From Anaerolineae bacterium (GTDB taxonomy: Bacteria; Chloroflexota; Anaerolineae; JAFGEY01), in the NCBI GenBank assembly GCA_016929205.1, contig JAFGJF010000633.1:1-7517 (forward strand): a stretch of DNA of 7,517 nucleotides, given 5' to 3'. Of this stretch, positions 3,297 to 7,517 are shown one piece after another. Numbering within the stretch: the first letter of the stretch is position 1; each line of letters starts with the position of its first letter. Position numbers and translations under genes: made by a program. The notes beneath the pieces were generated by a model. The model saw nothing but the letters and a program-made list of their open reading frames with translations. It made no database searches and was not told the origin of the DNA.

Positions 3297-3397
3297 TAGG
3301 GGCGATGCATTCCAGGAAATCGAATTCGTCGACAAATCATGTAAAACGATGCAACATGGCACTCTTGCAAGCAAATTCAGGGAATGCATCGCCCCTA
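3297..3397. mobile_element. MITE-like element with perfect 17-bp terminal inverted repeats
   Basis: TAGGGGCGATGCATTCC (3297-3313) is repeated exactly, inverted, at 3381-3397, around 67 bp without any coding potential. Both ends start with TA, so the element may be the 97 bp from GGGGCG to CGCCCC flanked by a TA target duplication, the signature of IS630/Tc1-mariner-type insertion. It is non-autonomous: no transposase is nearby. It lies 22 nt after the receiver gene's stop, where the DNA-binding domain of an OmpR-type regulator would be expected. Alternatively it is a bidirectional palindromic repeat of the kind scattered in many genomes. Confidence 0.65.
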
Positions 3398-3436
3398 TTA
3401 TTTCCGAACCATCCCCATAAAACGTCAAAACTCGTC

Positions 3437-3477: not shown

Positions 3478-3506
3478 TTGATTTCCAGCTCGAGTTGTGG
3501 TAAAAT
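3478..3506 (+). promoter_or_regulatory. Promoter of the leuS leader transcript
   Basis: TTGATT (3478-3483) and TAAAAT (3501-3506) are separated by 17 nt. Initiation near 3512-3514 would give a leader of about 400 nt before leuS, containing the leader peptide ORF beginning some 23 nt into the RNA. Confidence 0.75.
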
Positions 3507-3535
3507 AGGAACAACTTTGACAGAAAGATGATGCG

Positions 3536-3634
3536 ATGCCAGGCCAACCTGTTGTTCACCAACTGAACAGCCTTCTTCTTGCCAACCTCCTCCTCGAGAG
3601 GGGGCATTTGCGCTTGGGAGAGGGCCGGAGGTAG
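3536..3634 (+). CDS. Leucine-rich leader peptide upstream of leuS (candidate attenuator peptide)
   Basis: This ORF runs from ATG 3536 to TAG 3632-3634 and encodes 32 residues: MPGQPVVHQLNS, then LLLANLLLERG, then HLRLGEGRR. Nine of the 32 are leucine, including two runs of three. The codons are CTG, CTT x3, CTC x3 and TTG x2. Leucine-codon clusters in a short ORF between a promoter and an intrinsic terminator ahead of a leucine-related gene are the hallmark of ribosome-mediated attenuation, as in the leu, ilv and his leaders. When charged tRNA-Leu is scarce, a ribosome stalled on the clusters would change the downstream fold and allow read-through into leuS. The ribosome-binding site is weak (only GAAAG at 3523-3527, 8 nt upstream), which leaves the start somewhat uncertain. 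ATG at 3528 or 3531 opens a different frame of about 12 codons with only two leucines. The regulatory role is inferred from architecture; no family match is claimed. Confidence 0.68.
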   Translation: MPGQPVVHQLNSLLLANLLLERGHLRLGEGRR

Positions 3635-3639
3635 CCGGC
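3624..3639 (+). promoter_or_regulatory. Hairpin carrying the leader-peptide stop codon
   Basis: GCCGG (3624-3628) pairs with CCGGC (3635-3639), and the 6-nt loop AGGTAG contains the leader TAG. A ribosome terminating here would melt it. GGAGG at 3627-3631 within it can pair instead with CCTCC inside the leucine-codon region (3586-3590 or 3589-3593) or with CCTCC in the ascending arm of the terminator (3670-3674), the kind of mutually exclusive pairing an attenuator needs. Each of those pairings is only 5 bp. Confidence 0.5.
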
Positions 3640-3664
3640 AGGTAAGCAGGTTCGTTTGTGTTTC

Positions 3665-3696
3665 AAGAGCCTCCCCAGGCGGGGGGCTCTTTTTTT
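3665..3696 (+). terminator. Strong intrinsic terminator in the leuS leader (attenuator)
   Basis: AAGAGCC (3665-3671) pairs with GGCTCTT (3685-3691) and CCCC (3673-3676) with GGGG (3681-3684), with one bulged T and an AGGC loop. A run of seven T (3690-3696) follows directly. It stands between a promoter and leuS on the same strand with no gene ending just before it except the leader peptide, 31 nt upstream. A premature-termination role is therefore the natural reading. Confidence 0.88.
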
Positions 3697-3720
3697 GTTC
3701 TCTTGTAGGAAAGGCTATCT

Positions 3721-3784
3721 GCTCTGAGCCCCGTCCACGGGGCGACACTCCGACACGGAGTCGCGAGCAGAGCAAGCATTTTTT
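3721..3784 (+). promoter_or_regulatory. Branched RNA structure followed by six T in the leuS leader
   Basis: GCTCTG (3721-3726) pairs with CAGAGC (3768-3773). Inside are two further stems: GCCCCG/CGGGGC (3728-3733 with 3738-3743, loop TCCA) and ACTCC/GGAGT (3747-3751 with 3757-3761, loop GACAC). This would be a three-way junction. Six T follow at 3779-3784, five nt after the outer stem. It could be a second, weaker terminator in tandem with the first or a structured regulatory RNA. It does not fit the tRNA cloverleaf and I do not recognise it. Confidence 0.5.
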
Positions 3785-3805
3785 GATCTGAAAGGAGATG
3801 TGAAC

Positions 3806-3856
3806 ATGGGGCTTACGAGATGCGTAACCCAACCGTTGTTGTCCAAAATGGCCTGA
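3806..3856 (+). CDS. 16-codon upstream ORF before leuS
   Basis: ATG at 3806 has an excellent Shine-Dalgarno, AAAGGAG at 3791-3797, 8 nt away, better than that of leuS itself. The frame reads MGLTRCVTQPLLSKMA and stops at TGA 3854-3856, in a frame different from leuS. The stop codon is part of the first arm of a hairpin (GGCCTGA, 3850-3856) that ends 10 nt before the leuS ribosome-binding site. This arrangement suggests that translation of the short ORF opens the structure and affects leuS initiation. It contains a TTG TTG leucine pair (3836-3841). No homologue is recognised; the peptide itself may have no function. Confidence 0.45.
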   Translation: MGLTRCVTQPLLSKMA

Positions 3857-3891
3857 ACGACTGCCAGCGCTCCGCTCTGGCGGGTCAGGCC
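3850..3891 (+). promoter_or_regulatory. Long hairpin between upstream ORF stop and leuS RBS
   Basis: GGCCTGA (3850-3856) pairs perfectly with TCAGGCC (3885-3891). Within it GCCAG (3863-3867) pairs with CTGGC (3877-3881), capped by a further GC/GC pair around TCC. The structure includes the upstream ORF's TGA and lies immediately before the leuS Shine-Dalgarno at 3902-3908. Confidence 0.55.
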
Positions 3892-3901
3892 CACTCACCA
3901 G

Positions 3902-3908
3902 AAGGGAG
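3902..3908 (+). promoter_or_regulatory. Ribosome-binding site that sets the leuS start
   Basis: AAGGGAG ends 7 nt before ATG 3916, an ideal distance, but only 1 nt before the in-frame ATG at 3910. A further in-frame ATG at 3820 has no site. The start is therefore taken as 3916. Confidence 0.7.
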
Positions 3909-3915
3909 CATGACC

Positions 3916-6450
3916 ATGCAGCCGTACGATCCGCAAACGATTGAAGCCAAATGGCAGAACCGCTGGGCCGAAACGGGCATTGATCGGACCCCGGAGCCGG
4001 GTGACGCCCGGCTGTCCGCAGACGCCCGGCTGTCCGCAGACGCCCGGCTGTCCGCAGACGCCAACACCTTTTATTGCCTGGATTTTTTCCCCTATCCCTC
4101 CGGCGCGGGGTTGAGCGTCGGGCACGGGCGTAATTACGTGCCCACCGACGTGATCTCGCGCTACCACCGCATGCGCGGCGACGCCGTGCTGCATCCTATG
4201 GGCTGGGATGCCTTTGGCCTGCCCGCCGAAAATGAGGCCATCAAGCGCGGCATCCATCCTCGCGAGACGACCACGCGTTACGCGGCCAATTACCGCCGCC
4301 AGATGAGTTTGATGGGCTGTTCTTACGACTGGGAGCGCGAGATCGATTCGAGCACGCCCGACTTTTACCGCTGGACGCAGTCTTTCTTTTTGCTGCTGTA
4401 CGAGCGCGGCCTGGCCTATCGCGACGTGGGCCAGCAGTGGTGGTGCCCCGGCTGCAAGACCGTCCTGGCCGACGAGCAGGTCGATGCCGGCGGCGTCTGC
4501 TGGCGCGGCCACGCCGGCGTCACCAAGCGCGACCTGGAGCAGTGGTATTTTCGCATTACCGCCTATGCCGACCAACTGCTGGACGACCTGGAGACGCTGG
4601 ATTGGCCGGAGCACATCGTGGCCATGCAGCGCAACTGGATCGGGCGCAGCGAGGGTATCGAATTTGAGATGCGGGTCGACGGCCTGGATCGCGCGTTCAC
4701 GGTCTATACCACGCGGCCGGATACCGTATACGGCATACGTTTTGCCGTGCTGTCGCCGGAACACCCCCTGGTCGACGCGATCACGACCGGGGACCGCCGC
4801 GCCGAGGTGGCGGCCTACTGCCAGGAGGCCCGGCGTCGCAGTGAGGTGGATCGCCAGCAGGCCGGACGCGACGGCGTGTTCACCGGCGGGTACGCGATCA
4901 ATCCCGTCAACGGCGACCGGGTGCCGGTCTACGTGGCCGATTACGTGCTGATGAGCTATGGCGGCGGGGCGATTATGGCCGTGCCGGCCCACGACGAGCG
5001 CGATTTCGACTTTGCCACGCGACGTAATGCCGTCGCCCGGCACAGTATCCCGGTCACGGTGGTCATCGCCCCGCCGGGATGGGATGGTCGCCCGTTCGAG
5101 GCCGCCTATACCGGGCCGGGCACCATGGTCCAATCCGGGCCGTGGGACGGCCTGCCCTCCCAGGAGGCGCGGGAGCGGATCGCCGGTTGGATGGTGGAAT
5201 CGGGAATCGGCCGGCGCAAGGTGCACTATCGCATCCGCGATTGGCTGATCTCGCGGCAGCGTTATTGGGGCGCGCCGATCCCGATCGTGTACTGCGCAAA
5301 CTGCGGCACGGTGCCCGTGCCAGGAGAAGCGCTGCCGGTGCGGCTGCCGCACATCGAAGACTGGCAGCCCGGCCAGGACGGGCGCTCGCCGCTGGCCAAC
5401 ATCGCCGAGTTTGTCCAGACCCCCTGTCCCCGCTGCGGCGCGCCGGCCAGGCGCGAGACGGACACCATGGACGGCTTTGCCTGTTCGAGCTGGTACGCGC
5501 TGCGTTTTGTCAGCCCGCGCTACGAGCAGGGCCCGTTTGACCCGGCGGCGCTGGCGCGTTGGGGCGCGCCGGACCTGTACGTCGGCGGGGCAGAGCACGC
5601 GACCATGCACCTGCTGTACGCCCGCTTTTGGACCAAGGTGATGGCCGACGCCGGGATCGTGCCTTTCCGGGAGCCGTTCCCGGTGCTGCGCAGCCAGGGG
5701 GTGATGCACGCCCGCGATCCGCTGAGTGGCATGGTCACCCGGATGTCCAAATCAACGGGCAACGTGGTCACGCCGGACGAGGTGGCTGCCTCAGAGGGGG
5801 CCGACGCGTTGCGTGTTTACCTGTTGTTTATGGCGCCCTTTGAAAACAACACGGTGTGGGACGAGGAAGGGATCACCGGCGCGCGGCGCTTTTTGGAGCG
5901 CATCTGGCGGCTGGTCCATACCATCGCCGGCCGGGCGCCGGTTGGCCGCCAGGGCGGGGAAGCGGCGACGCGGTTGGCCGGCCAACTGCACCGCACCATT
6001 CAACGCGTGACCGCCGACATCGAAGCGTTCAAATTCAACACGGCGATCGCGGCCATGATGGCCTGCCTGAACGACATGACGGCCTATCATCAAGCGCACG
6101 GCGCCACCGAGGAACTGGCGCGATCGGCGCGCACGTTTGTCCTGCTGTTGGCTCCCTTTGCGCCGCACATCGCCGAAACGTTGTGGGCGCGTCTGGGGGG
6201 AGCGTACAGCGTCCACCAGCAGCCGTGGCCGGTCTGGGATGCGTCGTTCATCGTTCAGGACACGGTCACTCTGCCCGTCCAGGTCGATGGCCGGGTGCGC
6301 GACCGGATCGAACTGCCCGTCGGCGCCGGCAGAGAGCAGGTCGAAGCGTTGGCCTTGCAGAGCGACGGCGTTCGCCGCCACCTGGACGGGCGGCGCGTGG
6401 CGCGGGTCGTCTATGTGCCCGGAAAACTGATCAACGTGGTCACAGCGTGA
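3916..6450 (+). CDS. leuS: Leucyl-tRNA synthetase
   Basis: The enzyme (844 residues) attaches leucine to tRNA-Leu using ATP, in the cytoplasm; E. coli LeuRS is about 860 residues. The class I signature is seen as FFPYPSGAGLSVGH at 57-70 (the HIGH motif reads SVGH) and RMSKS at 609-613. WDAFGLPAENEA follows the first signature. The CP1 editing domain shows the threonine-rich TTRPDT (265-270) and MAVPAHDERD (about 354-363), so hydrolysis of mischarged tRNA should be intact. A zinc-ribbon-like segment has CPGC (177-180) followed by CWRGH (195-199). Further on are DWLISRQRYWG, a second Cys pair set, and DTMDGFACSSWY (516-527). The C-terminal part is the anticodon-binding helical domain and the small terminal domain ending VPGKLINVVTA. 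Little separates the catalytic core from RMSKS, so the leucine-specific insertion seen in E. coli is short or absent. An 18-bp tandem repeat lengthens the N-terminal region. Expression is probably controlled by the leader described above. Confidence 0.98.
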   Translation: MQPYDPQTIEAKWQNRWAETGIDRTPEPGDARLSADARLSADARLSADANTFYCLDFFPYPSGAGLSVGHGRNYVPTDVISRYHRMRGDAVLHPMGWDAFGLPAENEAIKRGIHPRETTTRYAANYRRQMSLMGCSYDWEREIDSSTPDFYRWTQSFFLLLYERGLAYRDVGQQWWCPGCKTVLADEQVDAGGVCWRGHAGVTKRDLEQWYFRITAYADQLLDDLETLDWPEHIVAMQRNWIGRSEGIEFEMRVDGLDRAFTVYTTRPDTVYGIRFAVLSPEHPLVDAITTGDRRAEVAAYCQEARRRSEVDRQQAGRDGVFTGGYAINPVNGDRVPVYVADYVLMSYGGGAIMAVPAHDERDFDFATRRNAVARHSIPVTVVIAPPGWDGRPFEAAYTGPGTMVQSGPWDGLPSQEARERIAGWMVESGIGRRKVHYRIRDWLISRQRYWGAPIPIVYCANCGTVPVPGEALPVRLPHIEDWQPGQDGRSPLANIAEFVQTPCPRCGAPARRETDTMDGFACSSWYALRFVSPRYEQGPFDPAALARWGAPDLYVGGAEHATMHLLYARFWTKVMADAGIVPFREPFPVLRSQGVMHARDPLSGMVTRMSKSTGNVVTPDEVAASEGADALRVYLLFMAPFENNTVWDEEGITGARRFLERIWRLVHTIAGRAPVGRQGGEAATRLAGQLHRTIQRVTADIEAFKFNTAIAAMMACLNDMTAYHQAHGATEELARSARTFVLLLAPFAPHIAETLWARLGGAYSVHQQPWPVWDASFIVQDTVTLPVQVDGRVRDRIELPVGAGREQVEALALQSDGVRRHLDGRRVARVVYVPGKLINVVTA
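4003..4062 (+). repeat. In-frame 18-bp tandem repeat (3.3 copies) inside leuS
   Basis: GACGCCCGGCTGTCCGCA occurs at 4003-4020, 4021-4038 and 4039-4056 without a mismatch, followed by a partial GACGCC to 4062. It encodes (DARLSA)x3-DA at residues 30-49, between the N-terminal helix and the catalytic FYCLDFFPYPSG strand, where other LeuRS have a short variable linker. The perfect identity indicates recent expansion by slippage or unequal exchange. Copy changes would keep the frame. Confidence 0.95.
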
Positions 6451-7440: not shown

Positions 7441-7517
7441 GGGGCGGTGGCGGAATGGCAGACGCTGCGGACTTAAACTCCGCTGGCCTTAACGGCCGTG
7501 TGGGTTCGACTCCCATC
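7441..7517 (+). tRNA. tRNA-Leu(UAA), 3' end beyond the window
   Basis: All arms of a class II tRNA can be drawn. The 5' acceptor strand is GGGGCGG (7441-7447). The D stem is GCG/CGC. The anticodon stem is GCGGA/TCCGC (7467-7471 with 7479-7483) with loop CTTAAAC and anticodon TAA at 7474-7476. The long variable arm has GGCC/GGCC, and the T arm is GTGGG-TTCGACT-CCCAT (7500-7516). The last base, C7517, would be the first of the 3' acceptor strand CCGCCCC, so roughly 7-10 bases are missing. It decodes UUA and UUG and is a substrate of the LeuRS encoded in this window. Confidence 0.95.

What the first reader, a model, noticed from the sequence alone, without database searches (positions are those of the whole stretch)
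3478..3915. Leucine-responsive attenuator candidate controlling leuS
A promoter (TTGATT-N17-TAAAAT), a 32-codon ORF with nine leucines in two triple runs, a hairpin whose loop holds the ORF's stop codon, and an intrinsic terminator with seven T stand in this order before leucyl-tRNA synthetase. Each piece is directly visible. Leader-peptide attenuation is well known for amino-acid biosynthetic operons (leu, ilv, his, trp) and for pheST; for a leuS gene it is unusual, since Gram-positive-type bacteria generally use T-box RNAs. The stop codon lies 31 nt before the terminator, so a ribosome finishing the peptide would leave the terminator free, while one stalled at the leucine runs would expose GGAGG at 3627-3631 for pairing with the terminator's ascending arm. 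The weak ribosome-binding site and the short (5-bp) alternative pairing are the soft points.
Basis: partly seen in the sequence, partly recalled or inferred. Interest (0 to 1): 0.85.

Follow-up and report, generated by a model that had tools for sequence, protein, structure and literature searches.

The report
Two-layer leucine sensor controlling leuS
In this uncultured bacterium, apparently a Chloroflexota, the gene for a leucine-charging enzyme sits behind a leucine-sensing RNA switch and, right at its start, a conserved site where the ribosome seems to slip back one letter at a leucine codon to make the enzyme; if true, this could be the first known natural use of 'hungry-codon' slippage to switch on a gene that starvation calls for.

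Summary
The attenuator is real. A Leu-rich peptide ORF (3536-3634), a hairpin over its second Leu run, an antiterminator and a terminator recur before leuS in 11 relatives; antiterminator strands co-vary (53 of 60 pairs against 45.8 permuted, P = 0.002). A model of this leader hits 129 of 396 genomes of the class; of 62 hits read, 53 precede ilvB, ilvD or leuA. No Rfam family covers them.

The larger find lies just downstream: SD-ATG-GGG-CTT (3791-3814). In 5 of 5 sequences that have it, leuS lies in the -1 frame, open from that site; in two of them no ATG/GTG/TTG follows the site. Of the 120 nearest database LeuS proteins, 8 show [N/H/D]GAY, the expected read-through signature, and 25 start only within or after the HIGH-motif region. 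Codon 3 is a CUY leucine codon, as in the leader runs; the window's leuS uses none (0 of 54).

Best reading: scarce Leu-tRNA first prevents termination, then stalls the ribosome at codon 3, which slips -1 on G-GGG and makes LeuS. The frame relation is well supported; slippage and its control by leucine are inferred. leuS attenuators were predicted before in Streptomyces.

The parts
3478..3506 (+). promoter-like -35/-10 with extended -10
   Evidence: similar boxes can be read by eye before the ORF in L001, L006, L082, L083, L086
3536..3634 (+). leader peptide ORF MPGQPVVHQLNSLLLANLLLERGHLRLGEGRR*
   Evidence: Leu-containing counterparts in 11 relatives
3572..3580 (+). first Leu run CTT CTT CTT
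3587..3604 (+). second Leu run CTC CTC CTC (3587-3595) and the partner strand GAGAGGGGG of the protector hairpin
   Evidence: local hairpin in 12 of 12; strand-swap test P = 0.03
3611..3623 (+). antiterminator 5' strand CGCTTGGGAGAGG
3670..3681 (+). antiterminator 3' strand CCTCCCCAGGCG = ascending arm and loop of the terminator
3665..3696 (+). intrinsic terminator
   Evidence: a terminator stands at this place in all 12 aligned leaders
3791..3797 (+). Shine-Dalgarno AAAGGAG, 8 nt before ATG and 11 nt before the slip codon
   Evidence: 9-14 nt is the distance given for -1 stimulation in PMC5009743 (passage)
3806..3814 (+). ATG GGG CTT: start codon, slip codon, hungry Leu codon
   Evidence: the five SD-ATGGGGCT[TC] sites before leuS all have leuS in the -1 frame
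3806..3856 (+). zero-frame mini-ORF MGLTRCVTQPLLSKMA*
   Evidence: MGL..., 5-16 aa, in all five
3806..6450 (+). leuS read through the -1 shift (MG-AYEMRNPTVV...); ordinary in-frame ATGs also at 3820, 3910, 3916

Best explanation
Expression of this LeuS is gated twice by charged Leu-tRNA reading CUY codons. Layer 1, transcription: with charged Leu-tRNA a ribosome finishes the leader peptide, covers the antiterminator strand and lets the terminator at 3665-3696 form. A ribosome stalled on the CTC run leaves 3611-3623 free to pair with 3670-3681, so RNA polymerase reads on. With no translation, the terminator is the final optimum. Layer 2, translation: ribosomes start at ATG 3806. With charged Leu-tRNA they read GGG CTT in frame 0 and stop after 16 codons. 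When Leu-tRNA is short the A site at CTT stays empty, the peptidyl-tRNA on GGG slips one base back onto the overlapping GGG, and reading continues GCT-TAC... into LeuS. SHOWN by sequence: ORF, hairpins, co-varying antiterminator, -1 frame relation, lack of a canonical leuS start after the site in two relatives, CUY avoidance. INFERRED: that slippage happens, that Leu-tRNA governs it, that termination responds to leucine, and that this is an auxiliary LeuS held in reserve.
For: Leader in the window and 11 relatives. Antiterminator duplexes: self -19.7 kcal/mol against -17.9 for swapped strands, P = 0.0037; 53 of 60 anchored pairs standard against 45.8 +/- 2.0, P = 0.0019, with two-sided changes at pair positions 2-4. 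Stall simulation: antiterminator before the 3' arm is made in 11 of 12; terminator as final optimum when the ribosome sits on the stop or is absent in 12 of 12. Frameshift: SD-ATGGGGCT[TC] in W, L001, L006, L083, L086; leuS in the -1 frame 5 of 5, no stop in between; product of chance openness 0.0032, times (1/3)^4 = 4e-5. L001 has no ATG/GTG/TTG for leuS; L086 only a TTG upstream of the site, before the terminator. The seven leader-bearing leuS without the site have no ATGGGG upstream and do have in-frame starts, mostly with an SD-like stretch before them. 8 of 120 database proteins carry GAY before the catalytic region, in 8 of 8 after N, H or D (residues with xAT codons), and 25 of 120 start only within or after the SVGH motif. 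CUY: leuS 0/54 against 27/113 in five other window genes, P = 1e-5; 50/597 in ten attenuator-bearing leuS against 357/1429 in T-box leuS. The Ala codon after the slip is GCT in all five, a rare Ala codon in three of these genes (2/96, 2/91, 4/62; also 17/89 and 12/86), but GCT was part of my search pattern. In 5 genomes, of 18 matches to GGAG-N6-12-ATGGGGCTY, four precede leuS and have a -1 frame of over 500 codons to the end of the locus. The frameshift members lie in one supported sub-clade at large divergence.
Against: No expression, ribosome or proteome data. Only five DNA sequences show the slip site; close relative L082 has the leader but a plain ATG start, and L084, L085, L112, L149, L153, L252 lack the site. 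In the window and L006 an internal start with SD-like letters before it (ATG 3916; GTG in L006) could make LeuS without slippage; in L083 the frame-0 stop overlaps a leuS-frame ATG, so re-initiation is possible. [quoted passage not shown] L084 does not form the antiterminator in the simulation. Once the 3' arm is made, the optimum under stall is the terminator in 8 of 12 (free from just after the Leu run) or 7 of 12 (free ten bases later), so kinetics must decide; and in 3 of 12 (L082, L083, L252) the antiterminator also forms without a ribosome before the 3' arm is made. CUY avoidance could partly follow phylogeny or expression level. Two other matches to the slip pattern (L318, 166 codons; L323, 256 codons) also have long -1 frames; both have starts in that frame upstream, L323 looks like an ABC transporter gene by eye, L318 was not identified.
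Confidence: 0.68

Rival explanations
1. Attenuator only: leuS is controlled by the leader peptide alone; ATGGGGCTT opens a second mini-leader (MGL...) that affects leuS translation by coupling or re-initiation, without frameshifting.
For: Internal starts exist in the window and L006; in L083 the frame-0 stop overlaps a leuS-frame ATG. The frame-0 peptides of the window and L006 share QPLL and end at TGA inside a hairpin-capable stretch (by eye).
Against: L001 and L086 offer no canonical start downstream of the site in the leuS frame; 25 of 120 database LeuS start only within or after the HIGH-motif region and 8 read [N/H/D]GAY in the leuS frame; leuS sits in the -1 frame 5 of 5.
Confidence: 0.18
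2. Transcriptional slippage: RNA polymerase adds a G at GGGG, so part of the mRNA has ATG in frame with leuS.
For: Same frame arithmetic; GGGG present in all five.
Against: Four G is short for polymerase slippage (recalled), and this does not predict a Leu CUY codon after the run.
Confidence: 0.06
3. Constitutive -1 shift: the shift is needed for translation but is not tuned by Leu-tRNA; it sets a low fixed LeuS level.
For: SD 11-14 nt before the slip codon would favour -1 shifts by itself.
Against: CUY codon in frame 0, the same codon class in the leader runs, and avoidance of CUY in leuS.
Confidence: 0.12

Closest known systems
Classical leuS attenuators predicted in Streptomyces avermitilis and S. 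coelicolor (Seliverstov 2005, PMC1262725)
   Same: leader peptide with Leu codons, antiterminator and terminator before leuS (abstract and passages seen)
   Different: another phylum; no slip site is described in the passages seen; homology was not tested
Leader-peptide attenuators of ilv/leu/his/trp operons and pheST
   Same: stall on cognate codons decides between antiterminator and terminator (recalled; his and pheST also)
   Different: no Rfam 15 family reaches its cut-off in the leader of the window (Phe_leader 22.5 bits against 55) or in 18 ilvB/ilvD/leuA/leuS loci of the family
prfB (RF2) autoregulatory frameshift
   Same: shortage of what decodes the A-site codon raises shifting into the gene that cures the shortage; SD stimulator (passage)
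   Different: sense Leu codon instead of UGA, -1 instead of +1, at codons 2-3, and the initiating SD doubles as stimulator
Hungry-codon frameshifting (Gallant and co-workers)
   Same: P-site slip next to an empty A site
   Different: a starvation effect studied in E. coli; [quoted passage not shown]
T-box leuS leaders
   Same: sense uncharged tRNA-Leu to control leuS
   Different: tRNA-binding RNA without a peptide; T-box motif in 43 of 133 distinct Chloroflexota-type leuS loci scanned, some with short upstream, and before the second leuS of G002 and G276, but no Rfam T-box match in the window

Membership tests
ribosome-mediated transcription attenuator | short ORF rich in codons of the cognate amino acid | tested here: met
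   9 Leu of 32; Leu-containing ORFs in 11 relatives
ribosome-mediated transcription attenuator | intrinsic terminator before the gene | tested here: met
ribosome-mediated transcription attenuator | exclusive antiterminator that a stalled ribosome permits | tested here: met
   co-variation; simulation 11 of 12 before the 3' arm is made, L084 failing; final optimum reverts in 7-8 of 12
ribosome-mediated transcription attenuator | read-through rises on starvation | not testable with these tools
   needs RNA data
Rfam Phe_leader RF01859 | reaches gathering score | tested here: not met
   22.5 against 55 bits
T-box riboswitch | T-box match before leuS | tested here: not met
   no T-box among Rfam matches of the window up to E 5
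programmed -1 ribosomal frameshift | two overlapping ORFs in -1 relation, conserved | tested here: met
   5 of 5; protein signature
programmed -1 ribosomal frameshift | X XXY YYZ heptamer | tested here: not met
   G GGG CUY: only the P-site tRNA can re-pair
programmed -1 ribosomal frameshift | SD 9-14 nt upstream | tested here: met
   11 nt in four, 14 in L001, counted by eye; range
programmed -1 ribosomal frameshift | 3' stimulatory structure | not tested
   hairpin-capable stretches downstream in the window and L006 seen by eye only
programmed -1 ribosomal frameshift | trans-frame product detected | not testable with these tools
   needs mass spectrometry or reporter

The most novel reading that the evidence does not exclude
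A natural hungry-codon switch: a start-proximal -1 frameshift (SD-AUG-GGG-CUY) makes LeuS only when Leu-tRNA for CUY codons is short, stacked on a leader-peptide attenuator reading the same codons, while the enzyme's own gene avoids them. It would be a sense-codon counterpart of RF2 autoregulation and a candidate first case of hungry-codon frameshifting used to express a starvation-needed protein.
Probability: 0.58. Interest if true: 0.93.

Novelty: new variant of a known kind. Interest (0 to 1): 0.85.

Why it matters
Hungry-codon frameshifting has been studied in starved E. coli, and a 2016 review states that no examples are known of trans-frame proteins made this way with a function specific for starvation (PMC5009743, passage; later work was covered only by the searches). 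This locus gives a concrete, testable candidate with built-in logic: the shift depends on the codon whose shortage LeuS relieves. It also points to a common family of branched-chain amino-acid attenuators in Anaerolineae without an Rfam entry, and suggests that automatic annotation cuts off the N-terminus of many such LeuS proteins.

Tried and rejected
T-box: no match. First alignment A1 used wrong minus-strand coordinates for L083, L149 and L252 and was discarded for A2. A scan of viral contigs gave no relative. Two protein searches with only the N-terminal part found nothing useful: two LeuS with ordinary starts and none. A search for the slip pattern in five genomes gave 18 matches; four precede leuS, and of the other 14 none was shown to be a similar case, though L318 and L323 have long -1 frames. 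The five frameshift sequences come from the window; further searches by class, order and phylum added none. The loci were scanned for slip site and missing starts only, those for starts, T-box and slip site, seven of 30 being read by eye; leaders could be missed there. More distant Anaerolineae leuS leaders (L009, L011, L012, L014, L037, L087, L094, L097) have Leu-containing ORFs and terminators of another sequence type and were not aligned with the twelve. Of 80 regions fetched, L118, L123, L146, L161 and L187 gave under 550 bases; L146 was too short to scan. L149 and L153 gave no data in the codon count and are not in the tree. The looser protein scan also hit P0067 (AGAH), left out of the eight GAY proteins.

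Full report
WHAT IS THERE. Downstream lies leuS, 844 aa from ATG 3916 (Pfam). The nearest relatives in the genome collection are two Anaerolineae MAGs, L001 and L006, 71% identical. No whole genome is held for the window.

LAYER 1, THE ATTENUATOR. Upstream regions of 133 distinct Chloroflexota-type leuS loci were scanned by script for a T-box (43 have one) and the rest, as far as long enough, for Leu-rich ORFs and terminators; many were read by eye. Ten relatives carry the window's unit: L001, L006, L082, L083, L084, L085, L086, L112, L149, L153; L252 was added later. Each has a Leu-containing ORF whose second Leu run (mostly CTC/CTT) forms the 5' arm of a hairpin, then a conserved stretch around TGGG, then, 42-57 nt after its start, a terminator such as GCCTCCC...GGGAGGC with a T run. 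In L084 and L112 the RNA stretch CGTGGG is kept although the peptide frame reads it differently, so the constraint seems to be on RNA (by eye). Pairing between that stretch and the terminator's ascending arm and loop is better within than between genomes: mean -19.7 against -17.9 kcal/mol, P = 0.0037. Of 60 pairs in a register that I anchored, 53 are standard, against 45.8 +/- 2.0 when strands are dealt among genomes, P = 0.0019. Two-sided changes occur at pair positions 2, 3 and 4, for example T:A to C:G in L083 and to G:C in L085, L112 and L153; the seven misfits are in L084, L085, L086, L112 and L149. A hairpin over the Leu run forms in 12 of 12 local folds (swap test P = 0.03).

STALL SIMULATION. 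With a ribosome on the second Leu run and the terminator's 3' arm not yet made, the antiterminator is in the optimum in 11 of 12 (not L084). Once the 3' arm is made, it remains the optimum in 4 of 12 (W, L082, L086, L153) if the RNA is free from just after the run, and in 5 of 12 (W, L001, L082, L086, L252) if free from ten bases later; in the rest the terminator wins, so timing must matter there. With the ribosome on the stop or absent, the terminator is the final optimum in 12 of 12; without a ribosome the antiterminator still appears before the 3' arm is made in 3 of 12 (L082, L083, L252).

A WIDER FAMILY. A covariance model of the twelve (R1) matched 129 of 396 genomes of the class at E <= 1e-3 (rough E-values). 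Of the 30 loci returned I left out 8 known leuS leaders and read 22 (two of them, L280 and L283, also known leuS). I added 40 hits chosen from the list, all better than E 1e-5 except L330 and L331. By comparison with four reference proteins the 62 are 33 ilvB, 14 ilvD, 6 leuA (L331 at only 23% identity), 3 leuS (one new, L304) and 6 other. Their leaders are rich in Leu, Ile and Val. So the leuS leader belongs to a branched-chain attenuator family of this class. Rfam 15 has no match at its cut-offs in the window's leader or in 18 loci of the family. In print: a search for leader peptide, attenuation, Chloroflexi and leucine gave no paper; of the 20 listed of 26 papers and the 20 listed of 24, none holds both 'leader peptide' and Chloroflexi, Chloroflexota or Anaerolineae by the printed counts. 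Subscription papers are not held.

LAYER 2, THE SLIP SITE. Between terminator and leuS the window has AAAGGAG-8 nt-ATG GGG CTT ACG (3791-3817). In frame 0 this is MGLTRCVTQPLLSKMA*. The leuS frame is the -1 frame and is open from there. The same ATGGGGCT[TC] behind a strong SD stands before leuS in L001, L006 (the same genome as L081), L083 and L086. In 5 of 5 leuS is in the -1 frame without a stop; the other frame-0 products are MGLTK*, MGLANRSQPLLNRPA*, MGLGTPTMK*, MGLKM*. Chance that all -1 stretches are open (dinucleotide shuffles, product) is 0.0032, times (1/3)^4 for frame agreement 4e-5. In L001 the only codons between the upstream in-frame stop and the conserved LeuS start are GAA AAT GGG GCT TAC CAA ATA; no ATG, GTG or TTG. 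L086 has none after the site and only a TTG upstream of it, before the terminator. The window, L006 and L083 do have internal starts, so there a second, shift-free route is possible. The seven other leader-bearing leuS have no ATGGGG within 250 bases upstream and do have in-frame starts, mostly with SD-like letters before them. A scan that did not use the slip pattern flagged only L001 (and its copy L111) as lacking any early start.

DATABASE PROTEINS. Of the 120 best LeuS relatives listed (64-77% identity; 7554 passed the threshold), 25 start only within or after the SVGH motif (24 with M, V or L, one named partial), as a gene caller would do when it finds no start upstream. The first script printed 27, of which P0048 and P0077 do contain the motif region. 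Twelve of the 25 lie on contigs over 10 kb. Eight others carry GAY before the catalytic region, in 8 of 8 after N, H or D (P0005, P0013, P0034, P0046, P0057, P0059, P0107, P0111), as xAT-GGG-GCT-TAY would read; P0013 also reads EPPQAGGSFF, which fits the terminator sequence.

CODON LOGIC. The leader's second runs and the slip site use CUY codons. In the five slip sites the codon read after the shift is GCT, rare among Ala codons of three of these leuS genes (2/96, 2/91, 4/62) and less rare in two (17/89, 12/86); GCT was in my search pattern, so this is weak support. The third base of the Leu codon was free in that search and is T or C in 5 of 5. The window's leuS uses CUY in 0 of 54 Leu codons against 27 of 113 in five other window genes, P = 1e-5. 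In ten attenuator-bearing leuS the count is 50/597. In T-box leuS it is 357/1429 (24 of 25 loci with data) and in leuS with neither 111/472 (7 of 11 with data). ORFs in these counts are mechanical and phylogeny is not corrected. The SD lies 11 nt (14 in L001) before the slip codon (by eye), inside the 9-14 nt range for -1 stimulation; one SD serving both initiation and frameshifting is on record for an IS element (PMC5009743, passages).

WHICH LEUS. With the LeuS family model, 9 of 10 genomes examined hold a second LeuS (not G001, a MAG of unknown completeness; in G249 only a fragment below the cut-off). A T-box stands before it in G002 and G276; none was seen before L236, L234 and L235 had under 300 bases upstream of the motif, and four loci could not be read. 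The window-type LeuS carries SVGH where the second LeuS of G002 and G276 has HIGH. In the tree of 38 LeuS, nine of the ten attenuator-bearing rows form one supported clade (99/99) and the five frameshift members lie in a sub-clade of six (100/99) whose sixth member, L082, lacks the site. L252 branches elsewhere. So the site is old, kept over large divergence, and probably lost once. An auxiliary, inducible LeuS is the natural reading; I recall auxiliary antibiotic-resistant synthetases under attenuation in Streptomyces (TrpRS), which no call here confirmed.

VERDICT. The attenuator is a well-supported new member of a known kind, in a family of its own in this class. The -1 start-proximal slip site is strongly indicated by frame, missing starts and protein signatures. 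Its control by Leu-tRNA is inferred from codon choice. Together they make a two-layer leucine sensor.

Noticed in passing
L287, L288, L293-L309, L328-L367: A family of Leu/Ile/Val leader-peptide attenuators before ilvB, ilvD and leuA in Anaerolineae, hit by model R1 in 129 of 396 genomes; no Rfam match in the 18 loci tested.
   Followed up: partly
window 3716-3785: A possible three-way junction (CTGCTCTG...CGAGCAGAG) followed by TTTTTT between terminator and leuS, perhaps a second terminator; L001 has a related outer pairing around a different insert.
   Followed up: no
window 3999-4060: 18-nt unit GACGCCCGGCTGTCCGCA repeated three times inside leuS, encoding DARLSA repeats near the N-terminus.
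   Followed up: no
window 3297-3400: Inverted repeat GGGGCGATGCATTCC...GGAATGCATCGCCCC just upstream of the leuS promoter, like a mobile repeat.
   Followed up: no
window 7441-7517: tRNA gene cut by the window end (Rfam 37.5 bits); anticodon loop and long variable arm suggest tRNA-Leu(UAA); ARAGORN lists none.
   Followed up: no
leuS of the window and relatives: The HIGH motif reads SVGH in the attenuator-bearing LeuS and related forms, HIGH or HMGH in most of the T-box forms in the tree (L251 and L255 are T-box loci with SVGH).
   Followed up: partly
L012, L013, L017, L037 (variants in L011, L014): More distant Anaerolineae leuS show TCGTCTT far upstream and AAGACGAGGA at the Shine-Dalgarno, a possible long-range SD-hiding pair with a GC hairpin between (by eye); the leaders of L012 and L037 use TTA for Leu.
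   Followed up: no
L085, L112 between terminator and leuS: A different small ORF (MTRRWLAPEEVISRMPG..., MKRLWSRAMIGTKGREVMHRLPG...) that looks related between the two (by eye).
   Followed up: no
L292: The same leader type stands before a gene that looks like an MFS transporter, with few Leu codons.
   Followed up: no
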